Origin: Thermococcus argininiproducens
Lineage (GTDB): Archaea; Methanobacteriota_B; Thermococci; Thermococcales; Thermococcaceae
Reading direction: 5' to 3'
Assembly (NCBI RefSeq): GCF_023746595.1
Contig: NZ_CP080572.1
Span: 124,001-188,000 of the forward strand
DNA: 64,000 bases
In this document: piece by piece, positions 25,811 through 45,574 of the stretch
Numbering within the stretch: the first letter of the stretch is position 1
Layout: every line of letters starts with the position of its first letter
Program-made: the position numbers and the translations under genes
Notes under the pieces: model-generated
What the model was told of the DNA's origin: nothing
Databases searched by the model: none
Seen by the model: the letters and a program-made list of their open reading frames with translations, nothing else

Positions 25811-27112
25811 ATGGTTGCTGAAGAAGAAATTTTTAACGAGCTACAAACAAACGGAATTATCGGTCCCCACTCCAAAATGCTCGGGCCTGTGGCAGATGGA
25901 GGGAGAATAATCTTCGTCACAGCCCCCGGATGCTGGGGCCCAATGATAACGCCAACCATTAGAGGAGGGCACGAAGTCAACGTCCCTGTAGCTGTCGATG
26001 GCGCGAAAGTTGGTGACGGTCTAGTGATGAGGATAAAGAGCATAAAAGTGCTCTCAAAAGCGGCTTCTTCGGGCGTTGATACAGTAAGAGAAGGAGCTTT
26101 TGTCGGTGATCCTTACGTGGCCAAAAAATGTCCTTCATGTAACGATCCCTGGCCCGAGTTCGAAGTAATTGGAATTGGAGAAGATGCCATAAGGTGTAAA
26201 CACTGTGGCTCCCCTGCATCCCCATTTAAGATGGTGAACGGATACACTATGGTGCTTGACTCCAATCTTGGAGTAGGAGTTACGGTAAACAAAGAAACGG
26301 CTGAAATGATAGCTCAAGAAGCTTGGGAATGGCATGCCCTACCTAAAAACTCAAAGCAAGTACCAATTCTGATCTTTGCTAAAGCCGATATAGTTGGCGT
26401 TCCCTCAAGAATAAGGCCATTTTTAGGACAGTTTGGAACTGTCCCCGCTGTTGATATACCTGATTCACACAATGCAGGCGATTTTGGTTCGTTCTTGATA
26501 AACGCACCCCATCCCTATGCAATAACTAAAGAGGACTACGAAACCAAGCTCACAGATGGACACTTGGATATCGATGCAGTTAGAGAAGGAGCAATAATAA
26601 TAGCCCCAGTAAAAGTCGATGGAGGAGGAGTATACGCTGGAGATGCTCATGCAATGCAGGGAGATGGAGAAGTAGCGGGCCACACAACAGACATAAGTGC
26701 CGAGAGTGTTATAGAAGTCTCAGTCATTAAGAACCTTAACCTAGAAGGTCCAATTCTATTACCTCCAGAAGAGGACTTACCACCACTGGTTAAACCTTGG
26801 AGAAAAGACGAATGGGAAAGGGTGCAAACTTTAGCTAAGAAGTTTGGAATTGAACCCGAACCGGTTGCACCAGTACAGATAATAGGTTCTGGACCTACAA
26901 TAAATGAAGCTGCAATGAGAGGTTTTGAAAGGGCCGCAAAGCTATTTGGGATGAGTATTGAGGAAGTTAGAAACAGGGTAACCATAAGTGGAGCTGTAGA
27001 GATTGGTAGACTCCCAGGAATAGTGCAAGTTTCCATGCAAGTACCCCTAAGTGCCCTTGAAAAGATGGGTATAGATGAACTAGTTGTCAAACATTACAAA
27101 TTACCCTTCTAG
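25811..27112 (+). CDS. Acetamidase/formamidase family protein with zinc ribbon
   Basis: A 433-residue member of the FmdA/AmdA family, which hydrolyses short amides to the acid and ammonia. Family features are the N-terminal PVADGGRIIFVTAPGCWGP, the central DIPDSHNAGDFGS and the metal/active-site area GDAHAMQGDGEVAGH near residue 276. Unusually, residues 101-137 contain a CPSC...CKHC pair that looks like an inserted zinc ribbon. GGTGAT precedes the ATG. It is the first gene of the catabolic island; 265 non-coding bases separate it from the next gene. Confidence 0.82.
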   Translation: MVAEEEIFNELQTNGIIGPHSKMLGPVADGGRIIFVTAPGCWGPMITPTIRGGHEVNVPVAVDGAKVGDGLVMRIKSIKVLSKAASSGVDTVREGAFVGDPYVAKKCPSCNDPWPEFEVIGIGEDAIRCKHCGSPASPFKMVNGYTMVLDSNLGVGVTVNKETAEMIAQEAWEWHALPKNSKQVPILIFAKADIVGVPSRIRPFLGQFGTVPAVDIPDSHNAGDFGSFLINAPHPYAITKEDYETKLTDGHLDIDAVREGAIIIAPVKVDGGGVYAGDAHAMQGDGEVAGHTTDISAESVIEVSVIKNLNLEGPILLPPEEDLPPLVKPWRKDEWERVQTLAKKFGIEPEPVAPVQIIGSGPTINEAAMRGFERAAKLFGMSIEEVRNRVTISGAVEIGRLPGIVQVSMQVPLSALEKMGIDELVVKHYKLPF

Positions 27113-27377: not shown

Positions 27378-27905
27378 ATGGCTGTTGTAAAACAAAGGAT
27401 ACCCCTTTGGATAGCCACCCCTATAACTGTAGCGGTAGCAACACCCTTTGCAACGAGATTGGGGACTTGGGGGCTCCCCGTGTGGATTAGCTTTATTGTT
27501 TGGGCTGAGTATTTTGTGTTCGGAGCAAATGTAGAAGCATTGAAAATGATAGGCTATGGTTTTCTCTATGGCTGCATTATGACGGCCTTTTGGCTAGCAT
27601 CATCCCTTGCATTGGCACCATCGCTAGGCTTTGACATTGCATTCATCATCACGAACTTCATTTGGGTTGGTATTGTAGTGTATACCCTAAAGTATCCCAG
27701 TATAGGGAAGGCGGTTCTAGCAATATTTAATGGAATTTCCATGACGCTTGCTGTATATTTCACCGGAGCATTGCCTCCAGTAGACGTTGGGCCCTATGCT
27801 GCTACTTTCGTCGCAGCTTTCTGGACAATAGTGGCAGGATATTTTGGGGCATTTCTAGGATGGTTCAACGTTACAATAACCTTCCCACAGACTGTAGAAG
27901 AGTGA
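27378..27905 (+). CDS. DUF1097 membrane protein
   Basis: The 175-residue inner-membrane protein of the DUF1097/YcdZ family has five or six hydrophobic segments (for example around residues 8-25, 30-45, 55-80, 85-105, 110-130 and 140-165). The function is not known for the family. A conserved-looking VWAEYFVFG and PPVDVGPYAATF lie in loops. Its place between an amidase and a split ATP-dependent phosphotransferase suggests it may pass the island's substrate or product across the membrane; this is inference. Confidence 0.75.
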   Translation: MAVVKQRIPLWIATPITVAVATPFATRLGTWGLPVWISFIVWAEYFVFGANVEALKMIGYGFLYGCIMTAFWLASSLALAPSLGFDIAFIITNFIWVGIVVYTLKYPSIGKAVLAIFNGISMTLAVYFTGALPPVDVGPYAATFVAAFWTIVAGYFGAFLGWFNVTITFPQTVEE

Positions 27906-28105: not shown

Positions 28106-29155
28106 ATGTCAACCTCTGGAAAATATAAACAAAATATCCTATGGTTTGAAGATATAAGTAAAGATGATTTAAGTATAGTTGGCGGGAAAGGGGCCAATCT
28201 TGGAGAACTAGTTTCCATAGGAATAAGAGTTCCAGAAGGGTTTGTAGTAACTTCAACGGCTTTCAAAAACTTTATGTATGAAAGCAACATTTGGGATAAA
28301 ATCCAACGTCTGTTAAGAGAAACCAAAAGCATAACTAAGCCTTCTGAAATAAAAGAAACCGCTGAAAAAATACAGGAAATGATAGTATCTACTGAACTAG
28401 ACAAGGACCTAGAAAGGGAAATAATAGAAGCTTATGAGAAACTCTGCGAGATAAAGAAAGAAAAGAATACTAAAGTGGCCATAAGAAGCTCAGCAACTGC
28501 TGAAGATCTACCAAGTGCCAGTTTTGCTGGCATGCAAGATACATATTTGTATGTCTCAACCCCAGAGAGTGTGATTAAACACGTGAAAAAGTGCTGGGCA
28601 AGCCTTTACACTCCGAGAGCTATTGTGTACAGAAATCAGATGAACATCCCCCACGAAAATGTGTATATGGCAGTAGTTGTACAAGCTATGGTGCGTTCTA
28701 AAGCTGCCGGAGTTATGTTTACTGTGAACCCAATCACTGGAAATGAGAATGAAATAGTTATTGAGGGAAGCTGGGGACTTGGAGAAGCAGTTGTAAGTGG
28801 AAGAGTAATTCCAGATCATTTTGTAGTGGATAAAAACACTAAGCGGATTATAAAGAAGCAGATTGCAGAAAAGACTATAAGAATCGACTGGGATCCTTAC
28901 ACCCAAACCGTGAAAGAGCTTCCTGTATTTCCACAATTCAAAAAAATGCCTTCAATTAATGAGAAAGAGATAGCACTACTTGTAGAATATGCCAAAAAGA
29001 TTGAAGATCATTATGGAGTCTTTATGGATATTGAATGGGCAATAGATAGATACGAAAATTTCCCGGAAAAGGTTAAAATTGTCCAAGCTAGAGCCGAGAC
29101 AGTTTGGAATGTTAAAAAGGGAAAAATCCAAAAAGCAGAAAGTACCGAAATGTGA
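28106..29155 (+). CDS. PEP-synthase-like ATP-binding subunit (PpsB-like)
   Basis: This 349-residue protein is only the N-terminal nucleotide-binding part of PEP synthase/pyruvate phosphate dikinase. It has GGKGANLGELVSIGIRVPEGF near residue 27, VAIRSSATAEDLPSASFAGM near residue 125 and the C-terminal DIEWAI...VQARAETVW. The swivelling phosphohistidine domain is absent here and is found in a second gene at 40852. Phenylphosphate synthase of Thauera is split the same way, with a subunit of nearly this size. It probably takes phosphoryl groups from ATP and hands them to the partner's histidine. The substrate is unknown. Confidence 0.8.
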   Translation: MSTSGKYKQNILWFEDISKDDLSIVGGKGANLGELVSIGIRVPEGFVVTSTAFKNFMYESNIWDKIQRLLRETKSITKPSEIKETAEKIQEMIVSTELDKDLEREIIEAYEKLCEIKKEKNTKVAIRSSATAEDLPSASFAGMQDTYLYVSTPESVIKHVKKCWASLYTPRAIVYRNQMNIPHENVYMAVVVQAMVRSKAAGVMFTVNPITGNENEIVIEGSWGLGEAVVSGRVIPDHFVVDKNTKRIIKKQIAEKTIRIDWDPYTQTVKELPVFPQFKKMPSINEKEIALLVEYAKKIEDHYGVFMDIEWAIDRYENFPEKVKIVQARAETVWNVKKGKIQKAESTEM

Positions 29156-29170
29156 ATTGAGGTGTAAAGT

Positions 29171-29464
29171 GTGAGACTAACTTTGACCTATGGAGGACCA
29201 TTTTACGAAAAAATAAAAAAACATAAGGAAACGATCGAAATAGATAAGTCGTCTCTTACCGTTCAAGAGTTAGTTGGGATTCTCTTCCAAAAATATCCAC
29301 AATTGGCAGAATTTTTTGAAAATAACCCTGAGAAGATCTTTGAGTTCTCAACTATCATTGTAAGGGGTAGGGTTCTGATACCCCAAGATTTGCCTAGGGT
29401 TCAATTAGAAGACAAGGAGGAGGTCTTCTTCCTGCCAGTAGTACATGGAGGAAGTGCAAAATAA
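29171..29464 (+). CDS. MoaD/ThiS-like ubiquitin-fold protein
   Basis: The 97-residue beta-grasp protein resembles MoaD, the sulfur carrier for molybdopterin/tungstopterin synthesis: LTVQELVGILFQKYP, LPRVQLEDKEEVFFLPVVHGG. The usual terminal Gly-Gly is followed by Ser-Ala-Lys, so it would need trimming, or it acts differently. A GTG start follows GAGGTG. It lies 15 bases after the ATP-binding subunit and upstream of two tungsten AOR genes, so dedicated cofactor supply is a fair guess. Confidence 0.75.
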   Translation: MRLTLTYGGPFYEKIKKHKETIEIDKSSLTVQELVGILFQKYPQLAEFFENNPEKIFEFSTIIVRGRVLIPQDLPRVQLEDKEEVFFLPVVHGGSAK

Positions 29465-29660: not shown

Positions 29661-29680
29661 CCAAGTGATCAGACACTTGG
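29661..29680. promoter_or_regulatory. Inverted repeat at the cyclase-gene ribosome site
   Basis: CCAAGTG-ATCAGA-CACTTGG is a perfect 7-base inverted repeat. Its right arm runs into the ribosome site (TTGGAGGTGG), and a TATA-like GAAATATA lies directly before it. It could be an operator or an RNA hairpin limiting translation of the cyclase-family gene. Confidence 0.45.
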
Positions 29681-29692
29681 AGGTGGCAAACC

Positions 29693-30502: not shown

Positions 30503-30586
30503 AAGAGTGTTAGTTTTTTTCTTTTAACTTCATTTGTGTTATACCATGGGGGGATTATATAGTAAGAAAATTCCAATTTCTTTTTA

Positions 30587-30664
30587 CATAATGTTATAAT
30601 TTCTTTCATAATGTCTATACCAAAAAGCTTAAGAATTTCAATTTGTATACCATATATTGAAATT
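30587..30664. promoter_or_regulatory. Promoter and inverted repeat of the AOR operon
   Basis: Two CATAATGT direct repeats (30587-30594, 30607-30614) sit two helical turns apart, before a TATA-like AAAAAGCTTAAG (30622-30633). Then a perfect inverted repeat with 9-base arms, AATTTCAAT (30634-30642) and ATTGAAATT (30656-30664), flanks TTGTATACCATAT. The inverted repeat covers the expected transcription start and lies 20 bases before the ATG at 30684, a typical place for a repressor. Confidence 0.5.
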
Positions 30665-30683
30665 TTTAATGGAGGAAGGTTAT

Positions 30684-32603
30684 ATGAGTATACATATTGA
30701 AGGGGGATATGCAGGAAAGACCCTTTGGGTCGACTTATCTAAAAACAAAATTCTGACAAAAGACCTTGATCCTGAACTTGCCGTAAAGTACATTGGTGGG
30801 CGCGGATTTGTTGCAAAACTTCTTTTTGATCTTGTAGATCCTGAGAGAGATCCTTTAGATCCTAAAAATCCCTTGGTATTTGCTACTGGTCCTCTATCAG
30901 GAATAGCTCCTGCTTCAGGTAGATTTACTGTTGGAGCTAGATCTCCAGCCACCGGAATCCATGGAGATTCTAATTCTGGTGGAGATTTTGCCATGGAGCT
31001 AAAGCATGCTGGTTATGACTTCATAGTAATTACTGGCAAAGCCCAAGAACCTGTTTATCTCTCCATCCAAGATGATAATGTGGAGATTAAAAGTGCTAGA
31101 GATTTGTGGGGTCTAACCACTCATGAAACATTTGACCACCTTAGAGAAAAAGAAGGAGATCGGAATATAAAAGCCGTGACAATAGGGCCTGCAGGAGAAA
31201 ATTTAGTGGCAACTGCAGCCATAATAGAGACTGAAAGTCGTGCAGCTGCAAGAGCCGGAATGGGTGCTGTAATGGGCTCCAAGAACTTAAAAGCTATCTC
31301 TGTGCGTGGTACAAAAGACATTAAATTAGCAGATTATGAAGCTTGGAAAGAAGCATTTGAAGAACTGTTACAAGTATTTCTAGATGATCCAATGACATCT
31401 CAAGTAGGAAGATTGTTAGGTTCCAATTTCCTTCATAGGGTTCATTCTGCACATGGGACTCTAATTATTGAAAATGGTCACCGTGGATATGCTACTGAGG
31501 AAGAACTTGAAAAGGTAAGTGCAGAGACAATATTAAAATATCATGTCAAAGGGAGATCTTGTTTCCTTTGTCCAATAGCATGTACCAGATCAATACACAT
31601 GAAGAGTGAGAAATATGGCATAATAAAAGGGAGAGGCCCAGAGTATTATTCAATACAATCTCTCACCTATAGGGCAGGTGGATGGGATACTGAGGCAGGT
31701 ATATACTTAAACAAGCTTTGTGATGCATATGGGATTGATGCGACAACATTACCATCCAACATCGCTTTTGCAATAGATCTGTATGAAAATGGAATAATAA
31801 CAAAAGAACAGGTTGGAGGATTAGAACTTACTTGGGGGAATTTTGAAGCAATAGAGGAAATTATAAAGAGTGTAGCTTACAGAAAAGGCAAGATTGGAGA
31901 GCTCTTTGCAAAAAGTACAAAAGAATTAATCAAAGAATTCGGGCCCGAGAGTGAATGGTATGCATTAGAGGTAAAAGGATTAACAATGCCCTCCAACGAT
32001 CCCAGAGCCGGGAATGTCTACAACATGAGATATGCTATCGCCACTAGGGGTGCCGATCACTTGAGAGTTTCTGTGCTAAGTAGCGGAAGGTCTTTGAAAT
32101 GGGACGAACTTCCAGAAGATGAAGCAATGAGAGTATTTGTGCACTTTGAGACTTATGTAACATTAGTTAACCTCTTTGAAGTCTGTAATTGGGCCTATTC
32201 TTCATACACTTCTACGCCTGAAATTGCGGAAGTAAAAGAAAAAGGAATGTTTAGGATATACAACGCCGCTACGGGCCTTAATTTAACTCCTGAAGATTTC
32301 GCAAAAGCAGCTCATAGAACAATACTAACTGAGAGAGCAGAAAATGTAAGATATGGGCTCCGCAGAGAACATGACTACTTGCCAAGAAGGGTCTTCGAAG
32401 AACCTCTACCAGTAAATGAGAAAGGAGATACCAAAATCTTCCCACGTGAGAAGTTCGAGAAACTGCTTGATGCATATTATGCACTTAGAGGACTCGATCC
32501 GAAGACTACAGTACCTAAACCACAGATTCTCAGAGAACTGGAACTCCACGAAATTGAAGAGGATCTTAGAAAGAGGGGTCTTATCAAGGAGGGAGAAGAA
32601 TGA
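30684..32603 (+). CDS. Tungsten aldehyde:ferredoxin oxidoreductase family, first copy
   Basis: This 639-residue member of the AOR family binds a tungsten bis-pterin and one 4Fe-4S cluster, oxidising an aldehyde or doing related chemistry with ferredoxin. It starts GYAGKTLWVDLSKNKI, has the pterin-binding GIHGDSNSGGDFAMELKHAG and CFLCPIACTR (cluster ligands, near residue 300), and a later FEVCNWAY cysteine. The start at 30684 follows GGAGG. It overlaps the ferredoxin-like gene by 4 bases (ATGA). The N-terminal part of domain 1 is close to the second copy at 33122. The substrate is not predictable. Confidence 0.88.
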   Translation: MSIHIEGGYAGKTLWVDLSKNKILTKDLDPELAVKYIGGRGFVAKLLFDLVDPERDPLDPKNPLVFATGPLSGIAPASGRFTVGARSPATGIHGDSNSGGDFAMELKHAGYDFIVITGKAQEPVYLSIQDDNVEIKSARDLWGLTTHETFDHLREKEGDRNIKAVTIGPAGENLVATAAIIETESRAAARAGMGAVMGSKNLKAISVRGTKDIKLADYEAWKEAFEELLQVFLDDPMTSQVGRLLGSNFLHRVHSAHGTLIIENGHRGYATEEELEKVSAETILKYHVKGRSCFLCPIACTRSIHMKSEKYGIIKGRGPEYYSIQSLTYRAGGWDTEAGIYLNKLCDAYGIDATTLPSNIAFAIDLYENGIITKEQVGGLELTWGNFEAIEEIIKSVAYRKGKIGELFAKSTKELIKEFGPESEWYALEVKGLTMPSNDPRAGNVYNMRYAIATRGADHLRVSVLSSGRSLKWDELPEDEAMRVFVHFETYVTLVNLFEVCNWAYSSYTSTPEIAEVKEKGMFRIYNAATGLNLTPEDFAKAAHRTILTERAENVRYGLRREHDYLPRRVFEEPLPVNEKGDTKIFPREKFEKLLDAYYALRGLDPKTTVPKPQILRELELHEIEEDLRKRGLIKEGEE

Positions 32604-33082
32604 AGGGAATGTTGGTTTTCTATCCTGAGAAGTGTTCAGGATGTAATGTTTGTTCTACAGTTTGTTCAGCTTACCATTTGGGCGTGATAAATCCCGACAG
32701 AAGTAGGATCAGAGTTCTGAGAAAAGAACAAGAAAATTTAGACGTTGTAAATGTATGTGTCCAATGTGAAGAGAAATTCTGCATTCAAGCTTGTCCATTT
32801 GATGCATTATCTGTATATCCTGAAACTGGAGCTATAATCGTGGATCATGACAAATGCACTCGCTGTAGACTATGCATCAGAGCTTGTCCATACAATGGTA
32901 TTATCCTAGACCCAGTGCTTAACCAAATAACAATATGTGACTTGTGTGATGGAGATCCTCAATGTGCAAAATACTGCCCAACAGAGGCTATACAATTCGT
33001 GCATCCATTAGCCAGCAAAGTAGCCCATGAACAAAATAAAGCAATAATCACATTGACAAAACAAATCCTTGAGGATCCTTGA
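32600..33082 (+). CDS. Four-cluster ferredoxin-like electron carrier subunit
   Basis: This 160-residue protein is of the HycB/DmsB type. Four cysteine groups are visible: CSGCNVCSTVC (residue 13 on), CVQCEEKFCIQACP, CTRCRLCIRACP and CDLCDGDPQCAKYCP, enough for four 4Fe-4S clusters. It lies between two AOR genes with a 4-base overlap to the first, so it is most likely their shared electron-transfer subunit. Similar ferredoxin subunits accompany tungsten AORs in multi-subunit aldehyde oxidoreductases and class II benzoyl-CoA reductases. Confidence 0.88.
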   Translation: MKGMLVFYPEKCSGCNVCSTVCSAYHLGVINPDRSRIRVLRKEQENLDVVNVCVQCEEKFCIQACPFDALSVYPETGAIIVDHDKCTRCRLCIRACPYNGIILDPVLNQITICDLCDGDPQCAKYCPTEAIQFVHPLASKVAHEQNKAIITLTKQILEDP

Positions 33083-33121
33083 TTTTAGCTTTCATTTTTC
33101 TGTTTAGAAGAGGTGAAAAAG

Positions 33122-34927
33122 ATGGAATGGTTTGGATATACTGGAAAAATACTGAGTGTGGATTTGAGTGAAAACAAACTCGATATTCTAGAGGCGGATC
33201 CAAAAGTTTATGAAAAGTATATGGGTGGGACTGGATACGCTGCCCATATCATACATAAGAATCTTAAAAAGATTAAAGATCCCGAGGATGAGTCCAACAT
33301 AATGGTTTTTGCTACTGGACCTTTAACCATTGATGGAATCCCTAATGGGGGAAGAGTAACTGTCGGCTCTATTTCTCCAGAAACTGGGATATGGGGCGAA
33401 ACTCATATTGGAACATGGTTTGCGATTGAAATGAAAAAAGCAGGATTTGACGCAATAATCGTAAAAGGAAAAGCCGAGAAACCTGTTTACTTATTCCTCC
33501 ATAATAGAAACGTGGAAATTAGAGATGCGAGCAAATATTGGGGTAAAGATATACACGAAACAATAGAGTCTCTCAGAAAGGATTTAAACGACTCAACAAT
33601 AAAGGCCTTAGCTATAGGACCTGCTGGAGAGAAGAAGGTTAAAATTTCCATTATAGCAAACGAAGAGGGATTTGGAGGAAGGTGCGGTCTAGGAGCAGTA
33701 ATGGGGTCAAAGAACCTCAAGGCAATAGTGGCAAAGGGGACGCGGACAGTTCCTGTTGCCTATCCAGAGGAACTAAGAGAGTTCCTAAAAGAATTGATAA
33801 AGAAGCTGACAAAAGGTGGAACTGGACTAAGAAGATATGGAAGCGCTGGAGGAGTAAAAGGATACCATGTGCTTGGGAATCTCCCTATTAGAAACTTCCT
33901 CTGGGGTAAATGGGACGATGATAAAGTTGCTAAGATTAGTGGAGAGAGTTTAACAGAAAACTACCTTAAGAGGCCATTCGCATGCACATTATGTCCAATT
34001 GCATGTAAAAGACTCGTAGAAGTAAAGAATGGAAAATATTTCAAAGAATTTGTCGGGTTAGGACCAGAATACGAAACAGTGGGTCTTTTAGGCTCGAATT
34101 TACTAGTAGACGACTTAGAGGCAATCATAAAAGCAAATAACATGTGCGATAGATTAGGACTAGATACTATTTCAACCGGAAACGTCATTGGATTCCTTTT
34201 TGATGCAGCAGAAAGAGGAATAGTAGACAAGAATCTTGAAGGCCTCACACTAGAATGGGGAAATGCAGAAACAGTGCACAAACTAATTGAAAAAATTGCC
34301 TACAGGGAAGGAATAGGAGATATCCTAGCAGAAGGCGTCAAAAAAGCTGCAGAGAAACTAGGAGCTCCCGAACTTGCGGTAGAAATAAAGGGTCTAGAAA
34401 TGCCTGCCCATGATGGTAGAGCCTACTGGTCCCATGGACTAAGTCACGTCACTATGAATCGTGGTGCAGACCATTTAGGATGGCCCCATATGCCATTTAA
34501 AGGCATTTCTGTGCCTGAACTTGGCATAAAAGCCTTTGACAATAGATACATCGATGGCGATGAATTAATTGAAACTGTGATAAAAATGCAAAACTTAATG
34601 ATAATCTACGACTCGTTGATTATCTGCAAATATGCATTTGCCGCTGGTTTGACTGTAACAGACATAATAAAGCTTCTTTACTTTGTTACAGGAAAAGAAT
34701 ACACTCCTGAAAAATTAATGGAAATCGCAAATAGAATATGGAAAGTACAGAGGAAAATAAACAATGAACTTGGCATAACTGCTAAAGACGATAAGTTGCC
34801 CCTCAGGATGGCAACACCCCATGCAAACAGGACGGATACACAAGTCCCACCCATAGAAAAATGGCTACCGAGATACTACGAGTTAAGAGGATTAACTGAA
34901 GATGGAGTTGTAAAAGAGATCGACTGA
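33122..34927 (+). CDS. Tungsten aldehyde:ferredoxin oxidoreductase family, second copy
   Basis: This 601-residue AOR-family protein differs from the first copy. It has the N-terminal GYTGKILSVDLSENKL, the GIWGETHIGTWFAIEMKKAG pterin region, CTLCPIACKR near residue 290 for three cluster ligands and IICKYAF near residue 503 for the fourth. GAGGTG precedes the ATG at 33122. The two AORs and the ferredoxin gene between them may form a heteromeric enzyme, or act on successive substrates. It is shorter than copy one by about 40 residues, mostly at the C-terminus. Confidence 0.88.
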   Translation: MEWFGYTGKILSVDLSENKLDILEADPKVYEKYMGGTGYAAHIIHKNLKKIKDPEDESNIMVFATGPLTIDGIPNGGRVTVGSISPETGIWGETHIGTWFAIEMKKAGFDAIIVKGKAEKPVYLFLHNRNVEIRDASKYWGKDIHETIESLRKDLNDSTIKALAIGPAGEKKVKISIIANEEGFGGRCGLGAVMGSKNLKAIVAKGTRTVPVAYPEELREFLKELIKKLTKGGTGLRRYGSAGGVKGYHVLGNLPIRNFLWGKWDDDKVAKISGESLTENYLKRPFACTLCPIACKRLVEVKNGKYFKEFVGLGPEYETVGLLGSNLLVDDLEAIIKANNMCDRLGLDTISTGNVIGFLFDAAERGIVDKNLEGLTLEWGNAETVHKLIEKIAYREGIGDILAEGVKKAAEKLGAPELAVEIKGLEMPAHDGRAYWSHGLSHVTMNRGADHLGWPHMPFKGISVPELGIKAFDNRYIDGDELIETVIKMQNLMIIYDSLIICKYAFAAGLTVTDIIKLLYFVTGKEYTPEKLMEIANRIWKVQRKINNELGITAKDDKLPLRMATPHANRTDTQVPPIEKWLPRYYELRGLTEDGVVKEID

Positions 34928-34950
34928 GCTTTTTTTCTTTTTATTAGGAG

Positions 34951-35721
34951 GTGAAAGATACGAACATAAAAGAGATTTCAGAGGAACTTGAACATCGGAT
35001 CAAACCTAAAGGTGCTCCCATAGCATTTAAGATGGTAAAGACTCATGAGATCCCAAAATACAAAGCCATCAAAAAACTAAGACGGAAACTCACCCTATGC
35101 CAAGTTTTAAAGTTAGTGGCAATACATGAAAAGACATATAGAGTCGATAGCAGAAGCTTAGCTGCGTGTGTTTTTGGGCCTTATATCCTTGGATTCGAAG
35201 AACTTCCTGAGAAATTAAAAGCAAAGTGGCTTTTAGGCAAGAAATATACTGAAGAAGGTTACGAAAAAATGATAAACGATATTATACACCTCCCACATGG
35301 AGAATATCAAGAAGCCATTTTTGGACCATTAAGGGATTTCTATCATCTAAAGATTAGTCCAGATGGTGTTATACTAACAATTAATCCTACCCAAGCTTAT
35401 CTACTTCTGGGAGGTTATTATGACTCAGAGTTCAAAAAACCGATTTCTGCTTTCAATGGCCATGCCGCATGTGAGATTGTAGCGGCTCTTGTCTTAGGAG
35501 ATCATCCCTGGATCAATATTCCTTGCGGAGGAGCAAGGGCTATGGCACATGTCCAGGATGATGAAATTTGGTTTGGAATGAGTGTCGAGGAGTTAGAAAG
35601 TGCACTAACTAGGATAAAAGAAATCGATGCAAAGTATCCTCCCCAAATATATCCCCTACTCACGGCCGGCCCTCATCCACATCATCCATGGACAAAATTG
35701 CTCGGAAAGGATGATATTTAG
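34951..35721 (+). CDS. DUF169 family protein
   Basis: The 256-residue protein of the DUF169 family has an N-terminal APIAFKMVKTHEIP segment. It contains a conserved SLAACVFGPYILGFEELPE core near residue 70, and CEIVAALVLGDHPWINIPCG with GGARAMAHVQDDEIWFGM near residues 173-208. Function is unknown; family members recur in anaerobes beside redox or one-carbon genes. The GTG start lies inside AGGAGGTG, so the exact start is uncertain. It is cotranscribed with the AOR genes. Confidence 0.75.
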   Translation: MKDTNIKEISEELEHRIKPKGAPIAFKMVKTHEIPKYKAIKKLRRKLTLCQVLKLVAIHEKTYRVDSRSLAACVFGPYILGFEELPEKLKAKWLLGKKYTEEGYEKMINDIIHLPHGEYQEAIFGPLRDFYHLKISPDGVILTINPTQAYLLLGGYYDSEFKKPISAFNGHAACEIVAALVLGDHPWINIPCGGARAMAHVQDDEIWFGMSVEELESALTRIKEIDAKYPPQIYPLLTAGPHPHHPWTKLLGKDDI

Positions 35722-35745
35722 AATTGTATTATGGAGGTGATAAGA

Positions 35746-36987
35746 TTGGATTTGCCAAATAAAGAAAAATGGGATACCGAAAAATATTGGCTGACCCCTT
35801 ACAATTGGATTGAGGAAGTACGATCCAAAATAACCCCCCCTGAAAGAGTAGTACTACATGACGCCACAGTTAGAGAAGGCCAACAAATGCCTGGAGTTGC
35901 TTTTAAGAGAGATGAGATAGTGATGATTGCAAAGGCCCTAGATGAGCTTGGCATAGACAGGATAGAATTAATTCCATTCCTTTCAAAGGATGACGAAGAG
36001 GCTGCAAAAGAGTTAGTAGACATGGGGCTCAATGCAAAACTTCTCTCCTTTGTAAGCTGGAAAAAAGAAGACACAGATTTAGCTTTAAAACTTGATCTAG
36101 AGGGAATTGTCTTAGATTTTGTTGGAAATCCCTGGCAAGGAAAGGTGTTTTGGAATTTAAAGCCAGAAGAAATCATCGAGAGAGGCCTTAACGCCGCATT
36201 ATACGCAAAAGACCATGGCCTTTATGTAGTGGCAATGCCTTGGGATGATTTCAAGGCTCCCCTAGACTTTGTAGAAAAGAACGTAAAAGCATTAGTAGAG
36301 GCCCATGTAGACAGAATTACCATATGCGACACATATGGAGATGCTCTTCCTTGGGCCATGGAATACGTGATGAAACGGCTTAAAGAGGCTGCTGGCAAGA
36401 CTCCCTTAGAACTACACATACACAATGACTTTGGATTGGCAACTGCTGGTGCTTTAGTCGCCGTAGCTTCTGGGGTGGAAGGGCTTCATGTAACAGTTAA
36501 TGGACTTGGTGAGAGAGTCGGTTTGTTATCACTCGAGGAAATTGCAGTTGCATTAGAATTTCTACTTGGTGTAAAGACAAACATAAAGCTAGAAAAACTA
36601 TATGAAGTCTCGAAAATCGTTGAAGAGATCTCAAAAGTAAAAGTCGCAGTAAACAAACCTATAGTTGGGGAAAATCAATTCAAATACACAGCTGGATGGA
36701 TCACTTGGATGCACAGAAAAGCAAGAGAAGCAGGCAAGCTTACGGGAATGCTCCCATTCATGCCTGAAGCAGTTGGAAGAAAATTGGAATATGTAGTTTC
36801 AAAAGGAAGTGGAACTTCATTCGTTGCAGAAAGGTTGACAGAATTGGGGATTACAGTAGAAGATCCCGAAGTTATGAGAAAAATAGCATATAAAGTTAAA
36901 GAGACTGCTAACACCCTAAAAAGTACTGTACCAGACTCTTTATTGATAAAAATTGCAAGGGAAATTTTGGAAAAGGAGGGGAAGTAA
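35746..36987 (+). CDS. HMGL-like (DRE-TIM) carboxyltransferase/lyase
   Basis: This TIM-barrel enzyme is of the isopropylmalate/citramalate/homocitrate synthase and HMG-CoA lyase superfamily. The catalytic VLHDATVREGQQ lies near residue 36, the metal-binding LHIHNDFG near residue 223 and the GLGERVGLLSLEEI loop near residue 252. It has no C-terminal leucine-feedback domain, so it may be a lyase or an unregulated synthase. TTG at 35746 is preferred for its GGAGGTGAT site; the ATG at 35731 has none. It stops directly before the next ATG. Confidence 0.72.
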   Translation: MDLPNKEKWDTEKYWLTPYNWIEEVRSKITPPERVVLHDATVREGQQMPGVAFKRDEIVMIAKALDELGIDRIELIPFLSKDDEEAAKELVDMGLNAKLLSFVSWKKEDTDLALKLDLEGIVLDFVGNPWQGKVFWNLKPEEIIERGLNAALYAKDHGLYVVAMPWDDFKAPLDFVEKNVKALVEAHVDRITICDTYGDALPWAMEYVMKRLKEAAGKTPLELHIHNDFGLATAGALVAVASGVEGLHVTVNGLGERVGLLSLEEIAVALEFLLGVKTNIKLEKLYEVSKIVEEISKVKVAVNKPIVGENQFKYTAGWITWMHRKAREAGKLTGMLPFMPEAVGRKLEYVVSKGSGTSFVAERLTELGITVEDPEVMRKIAYKVKETANTLKSTVPDSLLIKIAREILEKEGK

Positions 36988-37878
36988 ATGGAAGTTAAGA
37001 TTCGCGAATTTGAAACCGCAGGTGTTAGGTTAAGAGTAGACCTAATTTCAAGAACTCAAGAAGATCTTATTGGAGATCTAAGCTTTATTCAATACAGACT
37101 TGGAGGCCTAAAGGAGGTTCAAGATATAAAAGAAATCCAACCAGATATAGTGTGGTATGCAGATGTAGAAAAAATAGACATCAGTTATAACCCAAATGGG
37201 AAGGTTTTGATGTTATACGGACAACTGCCACCGGGAGATATACAAAAATTAATGCTTGCAATGATAGTCAGAAAACTCCAAGAGAATGGCATATACAATT
37301 TCCACTCTACAGCCGTGAATTACAAAGGGAAAAACATACTCTTTATGGCCGGTGAAGAAAACCACGGAAAGACGATGAGTTTAATTGAAGCCGTCAGAAG
37401 AGGAGGCGCAATTATAGGCACGGAGAGTGTATTAGTTAACGAAGATCTAAAAGTAGTAGAAGGCAGTCGGGATGTCTTTATAACAAAGAGAGTGAAGGGC
37501 ACAGAAAGATCAGACTTACCTCCTGCAACCGCGGGAGTATGGAAGTTCTTTGATAAACTACCAGAATGGAGATGGGTAGAAGAGTTTGGAAAGTTAGACC
37601 TCATAATAATTCCAGATATCGATGGCAATTTTGACACATTTGTCAAAGAACTCGACACTTACGAGAAAATGTATCAGACCTTCATATGCCTTACAGAAAC
37701 CTATTTCATGGCCCATTATATGCTTTCTAGTAAACGGCCATTCCCACTTATCGACTATCAAGAACTACGGGAAAGAAGGCTGAGATTTGTTAAGAAAGTT
37801 GCAGATGAGCTGGATGTATATTTAATTCGGGCCAAAAACCCGCAAATTATTATGGATGAAATTGAAAAAATTATTTGA
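36988..37878 (+). CDS. HprK-like P-loop protein
   Basis: The 296-residue protein has a central P-loop-like AGEENHGKT near residue 122, preceded by NFHSTAVNYKGKNILF, which resembles the C-terminal kinase domain of HPr kinase. A downstream acidic LDLIIIPDID is near residue 203. Thermococcales lack the usual PTS, so the protein target must be something else. It may act as a kinase or phosphorylase regulating the island's enzymes. It is cotranscribed with the AOR operon. Confidence 0.5.
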   Translation: MEVKIREFETAGVRLRVDLISRTQEDLIGDLSFIQYRLGGLKEVQDIKEIQPDIVWYADVEKIDISYNPNGKVLMLYGQLPPGDIQKLMLAMIVRKLQENGIYNFHSTAVNYKGKNILFMAGEENHGKTMSLIEAVRRGGAIIGTESVLVNEDLKVVEGSRDVFITKRVKGTERSDLPPATAGVWKFFDKLPEWRWVEEFGKLDLIIIPDIDGNFDTFVKELDTYEKMYQTFICLTETYFMAHYMLSSKRPFPLIDYQELRERRLRFVKKVADELDVYLIRAKNPQIIMDEIEKII

Positions 37879-37892
37879 AGGAGGTAGAAGGC

Positions 37893-38291
37893 ATGGCTGC
37901 CATAAAAATTTGGGAGGTTCCGGGAGTAACTGTTCCAAAACCAAATGAAAGAGTACTAAAAGTACTGTTTTCTCCCAATGTCGGCAACAAAGATCTTACT
38001 CTATTAGTATCCCTGATATACCCACACAGCACTACTGGGGCCCACACACACGATGTAGATGAATACATGTATATTGCCTCAGGACATGGAGTAGCAATTT
38101 CAGAAGAAGGTGAAGTAGAAGTCCACCCCGATATGCTCGTATATGCCCCAGCAGGAGTAAAACACGAGATGAAAAACACCAGCGACGAAACACTAAAATT
38201 GATCTGTGTTTACGTACCAGCACTAAAGGCATCGGGATATTTTGAAGAGGCCGAAAAGAGGGCTAAGGAGTTCCTTAGCGATAAGATTTAG
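37893..38291 (+). CDS. Small cupin protein
   Basis: This 132-residue single-domain cupin shows the metal-binding motifs HSTTGAHTHDVDEYMYIASG near residue 50 and APAGVKHEMKNTSDE near residue 86. Cupins of this size are isomerases, epimerases, dioxygenase-like enzymes or ligand sensors; none can be chosen. The ATG at 37893 follows GGAGGTAG. It ends the long operon; the next gene is convergent. Confidence 0.8.
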   Translation: MAAIKIWEVPGVTVPKPNERVLKVLFSPNVGNKDLTLLVSLIYPHSTTGAHTHDVDEYMYIASGHGVAISEEGEVEVHPDMLVYAPAGVKHEMKNTSDETLKLICVYVPALKASGYFEEAEKRAKEFLSDKI

Positions 38292-38307
38292 CTTATTTCT
38301 TTTTTAT

Positions 38308-39195: not shown

Positions 39196-39224
39196 CTTAA
39201 TCACCTCAAGATATTTTTTACAAA

Positions 39225-39290
39225 ATTAAAATAGAAAGAAAGATATTTAAATATTTCTTAATAACATATTTTTGATATATTTCTATTACA
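39225..39290. promoter_or_regulatory. Divergent promoter region with palindromic A/T core
   Basis: Between mdh and the UPF0261 gene lies an A/T-rich stretch. ATATTTAAATAT (39242-39253) is palindromic and can serve as a TATA element in both directions; GATATATTTC follows nearer the rightward gene. Both genes have close ribosome sites. It probably drives both. Confidence 0.4.
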
Positions 39291-39305
39291 GAGGTGACAA
39301 ATGTT

Positions 39306-40739
39306 ATGGAAATAAGTGGGACAAGGGTATGTGTCATTGGTACATTTGATACAAAAGGTATAGAAGCCAAGTATTTGAAAGAGAGAATAAAACTTTATGC
39401 CGGAGTGCCTATTTTAATTGACATTTCTCTCAAAAAACACAGTTCCTCCATAGTATCCCCTGATATCCCTAACTACACTGTGGCCCAAGAAGGGGGCAGT
39501 ACAATTGAGGAAGTTTCTAGGAAAAATCGAATAGAAGCCCAAGAGATTATGATCAAAGGAGCTGTAAAGATACTGAATAATCTCCTAAGGGAAAAGAAAA
39601 TAGATGGTGTTATCGCATTTGGAGGTTCAGTGGGGACAGGCATGGGTATCAAGATACTCAAAAGTTTACCCTTATTTATTCCTAAATATTTAATAACCAC
39701 GTTACCTCAAGAAGTTTCCTCCAAGATCGCTGGAAGCGACATTAGGGTCTGGTGGTCTGTCTCAGACATCTCTGGAGGAGACTCAATAAACACTATAGAA
39801 GCAACAGTGCTTAATCAAGTTGCAGCTGCTATTATGGGAGAACTAAAAGCAAAACCAGTAGAGATTCCCAGAAAACCAATTATTGTAGCAACCCAGTTTG
39901 GAACCACAACACAACACTTATTGATGGGCAAAAGTATCCTAGAAAATGAGTTTGAAGTGATTTCTTTCCATGCTGTGGGACTTTCTGGTGGATATACTAT
40001 GGAAGAGTTTGTTAGAGGTGAAGAAAGAGTAGTTGCAGTTTATGATCTAACAACCCATGAGATAATAGATGAGATTGCAGGTGGAATTTTAATAGCAAGT
40101 CATGATGGAAAACTAAGACTAAGAGCTGCCATTGAAAGAAAGATCCCTCATATAATCCTTCCAGGAGGGCTGGATCAAATTGTTTTTGGGCCTCCCGATA
40201 CCATTCCCCGTAAATACAGAAAACGCCTTTTTTACGAACATAGTAGAGGAATGGTAACCTTGATGCGAGCAAATGAAAGAGAAATGTATCAATCAGGAAA
40301 ATTGATTGCAGAACGAGTCAACGATGCTGAAGCTCCTGTAATAATCATAATTCCAATACGTGGGTTCAGTGCCTATGACCAAGACCCTCTTCTTCCCAAC
40401 TCCTCGGGAGTTTACTGCCAAAAAATCAAAAATTGTGAATTAGTACAAACCACCATACCATGGTGGGATCCCCATTCTGATATGATGCTCTGGAAAGGAA
40501 TAATGGAAAATATAGACCTAACAAACCCAAATGTAACCATCATCCCATTGGATGCCCATATCAATGATCCAGAGCTTGTACATTTTGTTACACAGATTCT
40601 AATAGAAACTATAAAAGATAAATGGAAAGGGCGGAAATACCAAAACAATAAGTTATACATAAATGACCCATACCCTAAGTTTCAAGCATTGGTATCATAT
40701 TATAAAGGTTATTTTAAGATGAAAAATAACAAAAAATGA
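39306..40739 (+). CDS. Tm-1/UPF0261 family protein
   Basis: This 477-residue protein belongs to the Tm-1-like ATP-binding (UPF0261) family: VCVIGTFDTKGIEAKYLKER at the start, GVIAFGGSVGTGMG near residue 99, and VSSKIAGSDIRVWWSVSDIS near residue 138. In bacteria it often sits beside a PEP-hydrolase-like TIM barrel, with unknown metabolic role; no such barrel is here. The C-terminal 30 residues are unusually basic. GAGGTG lies before the ATG at 39306; the GTG at 39294 lies within it. Confidence 0.82.
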   Translation: MEISGTRVCVIGTFDTKGIEAKYLKERIKLYAGVPILIDISLKKHSSSIVSPDIPNYTVAQEGGSTIEEVSRKNRIEAQEIMIKGAVKILNNLLREKKIDGVIAFGGSVGTGMGIKILKSLPLFIPKYLITTLPQEVSSKIAGSDIRVWWSVSDISGGDSINTIEATVLNQVAAAIMGELKAKPVEIPRKPIIVATQFGTTTQHLLMGKSILENEFEVISFHAVGLSGGYTMEEFVRGEERVVAVYDLTTHEIIDEIAGGILIASHDGKLRLRAAIERKIPHIILPGGLDQIVFGPPDTIPRKYRKRLFYEHSRGMVTLMRANEREMYQSGKLIAERVNDAEAPVIIIIPIRGFSAYDQDPLLPNSSGVYCQKIKNCELVQTTIPWWDPHSDMMLWKGIMENIDLTNPNVTIIPLDAHINDPELVHFVTQILIETIKDKWKGRKYQNNKLYINDPYPKFQALVSYYKGYFKMKNNKK

Positions 40740-40794: not shown

Positions 40795-40851
40795 TATTTA
40801 AGTGTAAAGTATCATATTGCATAATGAGAATCTCTCTTGGAGGTGTATATT

Positions 40852-42681
40852 GTGGGACTGTTTTCTAGAAAAAAGGAAGAAGAGAAAAAGGAAGAGTATG
40901 CACTTGGGTCCAAAGTTATAGAAAAATTTCTAGGAGATGACTACTTTCCAGTGAAGTGGGGTGAGAACTGGGACAAAGATCTAAATGTCGAATGGGTAAC
41001 TGTTTTGAAAGAACATGAAAAGGATCTACACTGGTGGAGAAGCGATTTGCACAATCCACATCCAGCTTTACCAATAATGGAACTCTTCACTTGGTGGGAC
41101 TCAAAGCTTATAAAAAGCACTGAATACATGTATAGAAGATTCTGGTCTCCCACAGGAAGAGCATGGCCAGCAAAAGTAGTTAATGGGTATGTTTATACTA
41201 CGATAATTCCCCGAACCGATCCTGACGAGCTAAGAATCTCCGGAAAATATTTCATGAAAATCTTGCCAATATATGCCGATATCTTCTTAGATCAGTGGGA
41301 CAAAAGGTATCTCCCCGAAATCAAGAAGAACTTGGAGTTTATATTCAACTATCCCTACGAAGAAGCTTCCTTAGGGGAGCTTATGTGGCTCTTAGAAGAG
41401 ATGATAGACATTTACGACAGACATTGGAAGCTTCACTGGATATTGAACTTCGCTCAATTCGCATCCTTCCTAGACTTTAGAGAAACCGTTCGCCAGATAC
41501 TTGGTGATGAGAAATACAATACTCCCGAGGTCCAAGACTTACTTGCGAGAATATTAGTTTCCACAGATGACGTCAATTGGGACTCTCTAAAGATATTATA
41601 TGAGATCAAGGAAGCTGTTAAGGGCAACTCTGCGGTAAGAGAACTATTTGAATCTCCAAAGACTGACGAAGAGGTTTGGGAAGAACTGCAAAAATTAGAG
41701 GAAGGCAAAGAAATATATGAAAGAATCGTCAAATTCCTAAAAGAATATGGAAGGAAGTCATTGTATGTATACGAGTATGACCTTCCTACCTGGGAGGAAT
41801 ACCCACCCACAGTCATTGCCCAGCTAAGAACATACCTTGCAATGGACTACGATTTCTACGCAGATAAAGAGTGGATCATAACAGACCAAAAAGAAGCAAT
41901 AGAGAAACTAATGGAAATGATACCCGAAGATAAGAAAGAACTAGTAAAAGAAAAAATGGAGAGAGCTATTAAAATGGCACCATTAACACCAAACCACCAC
42001 TTCTACATCGATCAACAAACAAATGCAGCTGCAAAATACGTACTTAGAGAGTTAGGAAAGAAGTTTGTAAAAGAAGGCCTGTTAGAAGAGCCCTATGACA
42101 TACTTTACCTGAAGTATGATGAGATAAGAACACTATTTGCAGATCCCTCAGAAATTGACGCCAAAGCTTTAGTCAAACAGAGGAAGGAAGAGAGAGAAAA
42201 GGCTAAAGAAATTATCCCAGCTCCTTACGTAGGTACAATTACAGAATGGTCTATCAAAGAAGAACCATATAAACAGGGATTATGGGGATGGAGCCTTGAG
42301 AAGCTGCAACAAGAAAAAGAAACATACGAACTTGCAAAGACTGGTAAGGCCAAAATCTTAAAAGGTCTCGCAGCAGGAGCACCAAAGGTAATAGAAGGAG
42401 TTGTTAAAGTTGTAGAGGGGCCACATGAATTCGACAAAGTTGAAGAAGGAGACATTCTTGTTTGTGACATAACGAGTCCAGCATGGATCTCAGTATATCC
42501 AAAAATAAAGGGAGTGATAACAAACAGTGGAGGACTCTCCTCTCACCCAGCAATAGTTTCAAGAGAATTTGGTATCCCCTGTGTAGTGAGCACAAGAATA
42601 GCCACCAGGATGCTCAAAGACGGCATGAAAGTGCGTTTGGATGGAATAAATGGTATAGTGACTGTTTTGGAAGAAGAATGA
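40852..42681 (+). CDS. PEP-synthase-like phosphohistidine subunit (PpsA-like)
   Basis: This 609-residue protein ends with the swivelling domain of PEP-utilising enzymes: the phosphohistidine is in TNSGGLSSHPAIVSREFGIP at about residue 565, preceded by GDILVCDITSPAWI. The preceding 450 residues are rich in Trp, Glu and Lys, with no PEP-binding TIM barrel. Subunit 1 of phenylphosphate synthase has this size and layout. The ATP-binding half is encoded separately at 28106. Together they could phosphorylate an organic acceptor from ATP. The GTG at 40852 follows GGAGGTG. Confidence 0.78.
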   Translation: MGLFSRKKEEEKKEEYALGSKVIEKFLGDDYFPVKWGENWDKDLNVEWVTVLKEHEKDLHWWRSDLHNPHPALPIMELFTWWDSKLIKSTEYMYRRFWSPTGRAWPAKVVNGYVYTTIIPRTDPDELRISGKYFMKILPIYADIFLDQWDKRYLPEIKKNLEFIFNYPYEEASLGELMWLLEEMIDIYDRHWKLHWILNFAQFASFLDFRETVRQILGDEKYNTPEVQDLLARILVSTDDVNWDSLKILYEIKEAVKGNSAVRELFESPKTDEEVWEELQKLEEGKEIYERIVKFLKEYGRKSLYVYEYDLPTWEEYPPTVIAQLRTYLAMDYDFYADKEWIITDQKEAIEKLMEMIPEDKKELVKEKMERAIKMAPLTPNHHFYIDQQTNAAAKYVLRELGKKFVKEGLLEEPYDILYLKYDEIRTLFADPSEIDAKALVKQRKEEREKAKEIIPAPYVGTITEWSIKEEPYKQGLWGWSLEKLQQEKETYELAKTGKAKILKGLAAGAPKVIEGVVKVVEGPHEFDKVEEGDILVCDITSPAWISVYPKIKGVITNSGGLSSHPAIVSREFGIPCVVSTRIATRMLKDGMKVRLDGINGIVTVLEEE

Positions 42682-42730: not shown

Positions 42731-43153
42731 ATGTACATTAAGAGAGATAATGAGTACTTGATAGTAAAACTAGAAAGAGATGAAGATCTTCTAAATGGAT
42801 TAACAAAAGTTGCAGAAAGAGAAAACATCAAAGCCGGGATGATTATCTCAGGTATTGGAATGTTAAAAGATCTAGAAATGGGATATTACACGGGTACTAA
42901 ATACCAGCGGAAAAAATTTGAAGGAATTTATGAAATAGTCTCAATAACGGGATATCTCCAAGAAACTGCTCCCAGAGCTCACATTCACATAAGCGTTGCT
43001 GATAAAAATAATAACGTCTATGGAGGGCACTTGCTTGGTGGAAAATGCGATCCCTATGCAATCATAGCAATTATTTCATGCAATAAGCTAAGCTTCAGAA
43101 GAGTTTATGTGGAAAAAGCAAAAAGGATGGAAACAGAGGTATACGAGGTTTAA
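42731..43153 (+). CDS. DUF296/PCC-domain protein
   Basis: The 140-residue protein of the DUF296 (PPC/PCC) fold shows YLIVKLERDEDLLNGL, MIISGIGMLKDLEMGYY, PRAHIHISVADKNNNVYGGH with a likely metal-binding His pair, and LLGGKCDPYAIIAI. In prokaryotes it is a trimeric metal-binding protein of unknown role, linked to DNA in plants. It follows the phosphohistidine-subunit gene by 49 bases and is probably cotranscribed. Confidence 0.8.
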   Translation: MYIKRDNEYLIVKLERDEDLLNGLTKVAERENIKAGMIISGIGMLKDLEMGYYTGTKYQRKKFEGIYEIVSITGYLQETAPRAHIHISVADKNNNVYGGHLLGGKCDPYAIIAIISCNKLSFRRVYVEKAKRMETEVYEV

Positions 43154-45573: not shown

Positions 45574-45574
45574 A

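What the first reader, a model, noticed from the sequence alone, without database searches (positions are those of the whole stretch)
30684..38291. Seven-gene operon around two tungsten AORs sharing one ferredoxin subunit
AOR, four-cluster ferredoxin, AOR, DUF169, HMGL-like, HprK-like and cupin genes are packed in one direction. The combination does not match the five well-known tungsten enzymes of Pyrococcus by context. A pathway joining aldehyde or acyl redox with carbon-carbon bond making or breaking is suggested.
Basis: partly seen in the sequence, partly recalled or inferred. Interest (0 to 1): 0.75.

Follow-up and report, generated by a model that had tools for sequence, protein, structure and literature searches.

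The report
Tungsten enzymes in unknown catabolic cluster
A heat-loving archaeon carries a conserved gene cluster in which an unusual tungsten enzyme works beside a phosphate-transferring enzyme and a ring-opening-type hydrolase; related clusters in distant bacteria use either this tungsten enzyme or a molybdenum enzyme in the same place, which points to an undescribed breakdown pathway.

Summary
The seven genes are real, co-directional and tightly packed. They are the centre of a 16-gene block (window 25811-43153) that four related Thermococcaceae genomes keep in the same order. Outside the order, clusters with the same core occur in a Firmicutes MAG, other genomes of its phylum, Anaerolineae and other Chloroflexota, and a Thermomicrobium roseum plasmid. 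All 29 genomes inspected for this subfamily have a tungsten AOR (11) or a molybdenum xanthine-dehydrogenase-type enzyme (18) close by. One sister pair has one of each, so AOR1 and the Mo enzyme look interchangeable. AOR1 and its cluster orthologues lack two of four residues conserved in aldehyde-oxidising AORs (E313, Y427); AOR2 is more canonical and unrelated in descent. The ferredoxin goes with AOR1, not both. Best reading: an O2-independent route that phosphorylates, oxidises and hydrolytically opens a hydroxylated or hetero-ring. The substrate is unknown.

The parts
25811..27112 (+). acetamidase/formamidase family protein (amdA)
   Evidence: Pfam FmdA_AmdA 152 bits; kept in the three relatives whose contigs cover it
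27378..27905 (+). DUF1097 membrane protein
   Evidence: Pfam; kept in the three relatives whose contigs cover it
28106..29155 (+). ATP-grasp protein like phenylphosphate synthase beta / PEP synthase N-terminus, 39.8 kDa
   Evidence: PPDK_N 386 bits; found near 21 of 29 subfamily PEP-utiliser genes
29171..29464 (+). ThiS-like protein (WorX-like)
   Evidence: weak ThiS hit 20.2 bits, under the 22.5 cut-off; WorX described in PMC13328260
29693..30502 (+). cyclase-family metal hydrolase; nearest solved relatives isatin hydrolases
   Evidence: Pfam Cyclase 143 bits; PDB 4j0n, 5nnb; 42-60% identical homologues in clusters
30684..32603 (+). AOR1, AOR-family catalytic subunit lacking E313 and Y427 equivalents (Y322, N438)
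   Evidence: AFOR_N/AFOR_C; residues; clade
32600..33082 (+). four-cluster ferredoxin (WorS-like) paired with AOR1
   Evidence: 16 Cys, four motifs; follows AOR1 in L056 and L167
33113..34927 (+). AOR2, AOR-family protein of a different clade with E313 and H448 kept
34951..35721 (+). DUF169 protein
   Evidence: Pfam 95 bits
35731..36987 (+). HMGL-like (homocitrate / isopropylmalate synthase-like) protein
   Evidence: PDB 6ktq homocitrate synthase 157 bits; homologues in L056 43%, L183 46%
36988..37878 (+). P-loop kinase of the PEPCK/HPr-kinase fold
   Evidence: model m573c7ce0f3f9; orthologues 42-44% in L152, L154, L167, L170
37890..38291 (+). small cupin
   Evidence: Cupin_2 56 bits
38308..39204 (-). 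malate/lactate dehydrogenase family, opposite strand inside the block
   Evidence: Ldh_1; PRK06223 malate dehydrogenase 295 bits, cut-off 283
39294..40739 (+). UPF0261 (Tm-1-like) protein
   Evidence: also in L057, L151, L153, T. roseum
40837..42681 (+). PEP-utiliser phospho-histidine protein, like phenylphosphate synthase alpha, 72.2 kDa
   Evidence: PEP-utilizers 81 bits; SHPA histidine motif; separate subfamily
42731..43153 (+). PCC (DUF296) protein
   Evidence: kept in the three relatives whose contigs cover it
43179..45148 (-). pyruvate/acetoin-dehydrogenase-type E1 beta and alpha
   Evidence: E1 genes also near the core in L167, L169, L151/L152, L153/L154, L195

Best explanation
This is the Thermococcus version of an undescribed catabolic module for a hydroxylated aromatic or heteroaromatic ring, or a similar cyclic or enolic compound, that works without O2. 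Proposed mechanism: (1) the PPDK_N and PEP-utiliser proteins, perhaps controlled or helped by the HprK-like kinase, move phosphate from ATP through a histidine onto the substrate, as phenylphosphate synthase does with phenol; (2) AOR1 with its ferredoxin subunit oxidises (hydroxylates) the activated substrate and passes electrons to ferredoxin, a step that a Mo xanthine-dehydrogenase-type enzyme does in other lineages; (3) the cyclase-family hydrolase opens the ring by retro-Claisen or amide hydrolysis; (4) HMGL-like protein, MDH or fumarase/malic enzyme and the PDH-type complex take the open-chain product to pyruvate/malate-level intermediates and acetyl-CoA, while AOR2 oxidises an aldehyde by-product. 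Shown here: gene content, conservation, AOR1-Mo enzyme exchange, residue changes. Inferred: every reaction, the substrate and the order of steps.
For: AOR1 groups with AORs of matching clusters (support 0.958), and all of these lack E313 and Y427. All 29 genomes with the PEP-utiliser subfamily that I inspected have an AOR (11) or XDH-type enzyme (18) in the fetched stretch. Of seven control loci carrying other PpsA-like proteins, two have one and five have none. L167 (AOR1) and L169 (XDH) are sisters in the PEP-utiliser tree (0.976) and the PPDK_N tree (0.896), with no XDH in the first stretch and no AOR in the second. PPDK_N and PEP-utiliser match Pps beta (40 kDa) and alpha (70 kDa) in size and domains and keep the histidine. 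The cyclase is nearest isatin hydrolases, the family of the C-C hydrolase of phloroglucinol breakdown (PMC10470551). XDH large subunits are nearest 4-hydroxybenzoyl-CoA reductase. Fumarase and malic enzyme genes lie in L167, fumarase-like genes in L056, a malic enzyme match in L169 (fumarases named by eye).
Against: No biochemistry exists for any member. Xanthine-dehydrogenase and AOR families both include aldehyde oxidisers, so the shared step could be plain aldehyde oxidation. L195 has transketolase and transaldolase genes and L169 a PGK and a GAPDH-C gene nearby, which fit sugar-type metabolism better than ring breakdown. No aromatic CoA ligase, UbiD carboxylase or Bam subunit was recognised in the block. 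The cyclase was not found in 10 of 29 loci (one on a 5-kb contig), HprK not in 15 and PDH not in most Chloroflexota. The window's PPDK_N protein does not group firmly with the cluster type (48% to the Ferroglobus protein). HMGL, cupin and DUF169 are not general parts.
Confidence: 0.4

Rival explanations
1. Aldehyde pathway: AOR1 (or the XDH-type enzyme) and AOR2 both oxidise aldehydes made from a hydroxylated substrate; the dikinase-like pair phosphorylates a hydroxyl, enol or carbonyl group, and the PDH-type complex cleaves a 2-oxo or hydroxyketone intermediate to acyl-CoA plus aldehyde.
For: Aldehyde oxidation is the activity the two swapped families have in common (XDH-L also matches glyceraldehyde dehydrogenase at 455 bits against 526 for the best model); PDH-type genes near the core; transketolase/transaldolase in L195; AOR2 keeps E313 and H448.
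Against: AOR1 and all its cluster orthologues lack E313 and Y427, which PMC12096430 gives as conserved in most aldehyde-oxidising AORs; it does not explain the isatin-hydrolase-type cyclase.
Confidence: 0.3
2. N-heterocycle, amide or lactam breakdown: formamidase and cyclase are amidohydrolases, AOR1/XDH hydroxylates next to ring nitrogen, and the kinase pair activates a lactim oxygen.
For: amdA in the block; isatin hydrolases as nearest solved cyclases; XDH-family enzymes typically hydroxylate N-heterocycles (recalled); T. roseum has an amino-acid-type ABC transporter beside the cluster.
Against: amdA was used as a query and matched only in the Thermococcus blocks; no nitrogen-releasing enzyme is shared by the clusters compared here.
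Confidence: 0.17
3. Phenol-type carboxylation: the pair is a true phenylphosphate synthase and phenol is carboxylated to 4-hydroxybenzoate, with AOR1 acting later as ring reductase like BamB.
For: Subunit sizes and domains; AOR-family BamB is a ring reductase (PMC12096430); XDH-L is nearest 4-hydroxybenzoyl-CoA reductase.
Against: The PEP-utiliser is only 25-28% identical to the PpsA-like controls and lies outside their clade; the genome's single UbiD homologue is far from the block; reductive chemistry is hard to square with an aerobe such as T. roseum (aerobic growth recalled).
Confidence: 0.08
4. Two ordinary aldehyde oxidoreductases that happen to sit among unrelated metabolic genes.
For: P. 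furiosus AOR is thought to detoxify aldehydes (PMC13328260), and AOR2 has no firm cluster-specific orthologue.
Against: Order kept in five genomes and recurrence of AOR1, PPDK_N, PEP-utiliser and cyclase in distant phyla.
Confidence: 0.05

Closest known systems
Class II WOR (WorL plus four-cluster WorS), e.g. P. furiosus ASOR/WOR5
   Same: AOR-family large subunit directly followed by a 16-Cys polyferredoxin
   Different: 31% identical to the genome's own ASOR; lacks E313 and Y427; different operon
Phenylphosphate synthase (Thauera, Desulfatiglans)
   Same: Split PEP-synthase-like pair, about 40 and 70 kDa, with conserved histidine
   Different: Separate subfamily, SHPA in place of the CHAA, SHAA or AHAA motifs of the controls, no carboxylase, linked to AOR or XDH
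Phloroglucinol pathway of Clostridium scatologenes
   Same: Uses a cyclase-family C-C hydrolase after ring reduction
   Different: No phosphotransferase or AOR named in the passages read; hydrolase substrate here unknown
Class II benzoyl-CoA reductase (BamBC)
   Same: AOR-family catalytic subunit with FeS subunit acting outside aldehyde chemistry
   Different: No Bam D-I genes recognised in the block; AOR1 scores higher with PfAOR (336 bits) than BamB (198 bits)
Resorcinol/hydroxyhydroquinone pathway of Azoarcus anaerobius (recalled; the search for it found no paper)
   Same: O2-independent Mo hydroxylase plus PDH-like ring-cleaving enzyme giving malate and acetate
   Different: No phosphotransferase; Mo enzyme of another family (recalled)

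Membership tests
AOR/WOR family | AFOR_N and AFOR_C domains | tested here: met
   AOR1 265 and 311 bits, AOR2 231 and 390 bits
AOR/WOR family | Cys ligands of the [4Fe-4S] cluster | tested here: met
   AOR1 C293, C296, C300 and C501 invariant in its clade; AOR2 has the C..C...C motif at 291
AOR/WOR family | tungsten bis-metallopterin cofactor | not testable with these tools
   needs metal analysis
Aldehyde-oxidising AOR | second-shell T243, E313, Y427, H448 (PfAOR numbering) | tested here: not met
   AOR1: S, Y, N, H; AOR2: S, E, H, H, a pattern nearer the canonical one
Class II WOR (WorL+WorS) | adjacent four-cluster ferredoxin subunit | tested here: met
   for AOR1; not shown for AOR2; complex formation not tested
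Class II benzoyl-CoA reductase | protein Cys ligand to W (BamB Cys322) | tested here: inconclusive
   BamB was not in my alignment; AOR1 has Tyr at the E313 column
Class II benzoyl-CoA reductase | Bam D-I electron-transfer subunits in the cluster | tested here: not met
   none among the 16 genes scanned; rest of the genome not searched for them
Phenylphosphate synthase | alpha (about 70 kDa, His) and beta (about 40 kDa, ATP-grasp) pair | tested here: met
   72.2 and 39.8 kDa, motifs, sizes from PMC6114531
Phenylphosphate synthase | falls with PpsA-type proteins | tested here: not met
   separate from the seven control sequences, support 1.0; none of the controls has its activity tested
Phenylphosphate synthase | linked phenylphosphate carboxylase (UbiD type) | tested here: not met
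   single UbiD match about 1 Mb away
Cyclase/isatin hydrolase family | PF04199 domain and metal motif | tested here: met
   142.6 bits; HxGTHxD and H columns invariant in six homologues; activity not tested
Homocitrate/isopropylmalate synthase | curated equivalog or subfamily score | tested here: not met
   best 308 bits against a 517 cut-off

The most novel reading that the evidence does not exclude
AOR1 is the first tungsten enzyme of the AOR family that hydroxylates or otherwise oxidises a phospho-activated aromatic or heteroaromatic ring without O2, and the module is a third way, beside the CoA-thioester and carboxylation routes, to open such rings, present even in fermentative Thermococcus.
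Probability: 0.2. Interest if true: 0.88.

Novelty: new variant of a known kind. Interest (0 to 1): 0.6.

Why it matters
According to PMC13328260 only 5 of 92 WOR clades have a member with a defined physiological role. This cluster gives an uncharacterised AOR clade a specific metabolic context, a testable partner set and a natural experiment: the same partners use a molybdenum enzyme in other lineages. If the ring reading holds, it adds a new chemistry for tungsten and aromatic-compound breakdown to an order, Thermococcales, better known for sugars and peptides (recalled).

Tried and rejected
Phenol carboxylation was considered and set low. A shared ferredoxin for both AORs was rejected on gene order in L056 and L167. 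A cluster-wide upstream motif (AATGTTATA) was examined: two exact sites at 28022(-) and 30590(+), both upstream of cluster genes, but counts with one mismatch (40 against a mean of 27) are weak after picking the motif by eye; not used as evidence. The AOR1 AlphaFold model was too weak around the active site (residues 239-281 and 427-470 under pLDDT 50), so I drew nothing from it and ran no fold search on it. HprK was absent from plasmids. The search in the phylum of G117 was empty (0 of 326), which by the tool's own remark shows little.

Rows dropped: the AOR tree used 121 of 135 full-length sequences (closer than 96% removed); one search counts include near-identical rows. Of 32 Chloroflexota genomes with a match, I fetched the surroundings of 16 besides G116. 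Of 80 loci, 50 were given.

Identities recalled and not tested: G078 (1,845,800 bases) is probably Thermococcus sibiricus; L006 is probably GAPOR.
Full report
Observation. Pfam names AOR domains in genes 1 and 3, Fer4 in gene 2, DUF169, HMGL-like and cupin; gene 6 has no Pfam match. AOR1 probably starts at ATG 30684 rather than at TTG 30657. An AT-rich stretch with a TATA-like element before AOR1 is conserved in relatives, so a transcript from AOR1 to the cupin is likely but not shown.

Wider block. The genes lie in a block from amdA (25811) to a PCC gene (43153): amdA, DUF1097, PPDK_N, ThiS-like, cyclase, the seven genes, MDH on the other strand, UPF0261, PEP-utiliser, PCC. tblastn of these proteins shows the same order in G078, G079, G084 and, over two contigs, G083; contig ends cut off the PCC gene and part of the PEP-utiliser in G079 and the amdA-side genes in G083. 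Of 94 genomes of the order, five including the own one have a strong HprK match.

The own genome. Six AFOR_C genes were found. Three of the others are orthologues of PfAOR (1221 bits), FOR (1252 bits) and WOR5/ASOR (1255 bits); the sixth was not tested. AOR1 and AOR2 are 36% identical to each other; AOR1 is 35% and AOR2 38% identical to the own AOR.

Clusters elsewhere. L056, a Firmicutes MAG, has cyclase, HMGL, cupin, AOR2-like, PPDK_N, AOR1, ferredoxin and PEP-utiliser; its ORF list adds fumarase-like, ThiS-like and other genes that I named by eye, with Pfam support for AtuA and DUF4387. L057, a Chloroflexi MAG, has PEP-utiliser, AOR1, cyclase and UPF0261. Searches with the PEP-utiliser then gave G173 and G211 in the class of L057 (3 of 396 genomes), G678 and G669 in the phylum of L056 (3 of 299), one of 329 in the phylum of the Bathyarchaeota MAG of L065, 32 of 350 in the phylum of L057, 0 of 326 in the phylum of G117, and a Thermomicrobium roseum plasmid.

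What is constant. I inspected 29 genomes with this PEP-utiliser: five Thermococcaceae, G115, G678, G669, G173, G211, G116, G1062, T. roseum and 16 further Chloroflexota. All have an AOR-family gene (11) or XDH-type subunits (18) in the stretch held; for G1062 the AOR is a fragment at the end of a 5-kb contig. The cyclase is in 19 of 29, PPDK_N in 21 of 29 (one more, G1190, has a PPDK_N/PEP-utiliser fusion; a 23% match in G1467 was not counted), HprK in 14 of 29. Misses include short contigs. As a control, of seven loci with other PpsA-like proteins (L157-L163), L162 has XDH and L163 has AORs; five have neither, but several of these stretches are short.

Exchange of tungsten and molybdenum enzymes. 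G678 (AOR1 with ferredoxin) and G669 (XDH-type, three subunits) are sisters in the PEP-utiliser tree (0.976) and in the small PPDK_N tree (0.896), and their HprK proteins are 58% identical. No XDH was found in the G678 stretch and no AOR in the G669 stretch. The simplest reading is that the two enzymes do the same step. The XDH large subunits of G669 and T. roseum are 40% identical; their best curated model is 4-hydroxybenzoyl-CoA reductase alpha, at 526 and 495 bits against a cut-off of 995.

AOR1 against AOR2. PMC12096430 (passages read) lists Thr243, Glu313, Tyr427 and His448 as conserved second-shell residues of most aldehyde-oxidising AORs. From the alignment with 1aor AOR1 has S247, Y322, N438 and H459. 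The cluster orthologues have T/Y/F/H (L056), T/Y/L/H (L167) and T/S/L/H (L057, L151, L153). In an alignment of 139 AOR rows, E313 is kept in 108; the 31 without it include other groups too, so its loss is not unique to AOR1. AOR1 and these orthologues form one clade, together with L020 from another archaeal genome, in whose fetched stretch (L053) no other cluster gene was matched (support 0.958). AOR2 sits elsewhere and L056's second AOR joins it only weakly (0.463).

Phosphotransferase. PPDK_N (39.8 kDa) and PEP-utiliser (72.2 kDa) have the sizes and domains of phenylphosphate synthase beta and alpha (PMC6114531, passages). The catalytic histidine is in SHPA in the window protein; the Ferroglobus- and Archaeoglobi-type controls have CHAA or SHAA. 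The two groups are separate (support 1.0). No reaction has been shown. Against a tidy picture, the window's PPDK_N is closer to the Ferroglobus one (48%) than to cluster ones (37-42%), and one cluster-type protein (L197) has SHAA.

HprK-like protein. The model (mean pLDDT 79.9, eight sequences) matches PEPCK (best E 3.7e-8, TM 0.44) and HPr kinase (1ko7, E 4.2e-5, TM 0.26); the Walker-A motif is conserved. It is a P-loop kinase by fold; its target is unknown.

Hydrolase and downstream. The cyclase is nearest isatin hydrolases (52 bits). PMC10470551 (passages) shows a member of this family doing C-C hydrolysis of dihydrophloroglucinol. PDH-type E1 genes lie close to the core in the window and in L167, L169, L151/L152, L153/L154 and L195; malic enzyme in L167 and L169, fumarase-like genes in L056 and L167 (the fumarase name is by eye). 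T. roseum and several Chloroflexota have a fumarylacetoacetate-hydrolase-family gene instead. Against the ring reading, L195 has transketolase, transaldolase and phosphoesterase genes and L169 a PGK and a GAPDH-C gene.

Conclusion and novelty. I commit, at 0.4, to an O2-independent activation-oxidation-hydrolysis route for a hydroxylated or hetero-ring, with plain aldehyde oxidation as main rival at 0.3. In print I found no description of the combination: searches, open-access full text only; one search gave two papers and seven that hold phenylphosphate synthase with AOR or tungsten; I read passages of three of these and saw no such cluster. PMC13328260 was read as outline and parts 1-4 of 7. 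The WOR supplementary tree was not available, so the clade number of AOR1 is unknown.

Noticed in passing
window 43179-50872: PDH/acetoin-dehydrogenase-type genes (two E1 alpha/beta pairs, E2-like, AcoX-like, lipoate ligase-like) in a Thermococcaceae genome, an order that normally uses ferredoxin-dependent oxidoreductases (recalled); annotated partly by eye.
   Followed up: partly
window 11941-21167: Restriction-modification-like island: DNA methyltransferase, 1600-aa helicase with weak DpdJ/DrmA matches, unknown 458-aa protein, type II restriction enzyme (207 bits) and an orphan-type methyltransferase.
   Followed up: partly
L044:4318-6165: G078 carries a further AOR next to the block, upstream of the methyltransferase-like gene and amdA; no such ORF lies at that place in the window.
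   Followed up: no
L079, L087, L094, L096, L100, L123, L131, L133: Other AOR-family proteins with Thr at the E313 position, beside a four-cluster ferredoxin; a separate set without the usual catalytic Glu.
   Followed up: no
L166 (NC_011961.1, 45300-74952): T. roseum plasmid has the same core with a Mo XDH-type enzyme, a fumarylacetoacetate-hydrolase-family gene and an ABC transporter, a named organism in which the pathway could be tested.
   Followed up: partly
L163 (G162) and L162 (G133): Clusters with a more distant PEP-utiliser that also combine PPDK_N with AORs (L163) or XDH and FAH-family genes (L162), so the module may be broader than the subfamily counted here.
   Followed up: no
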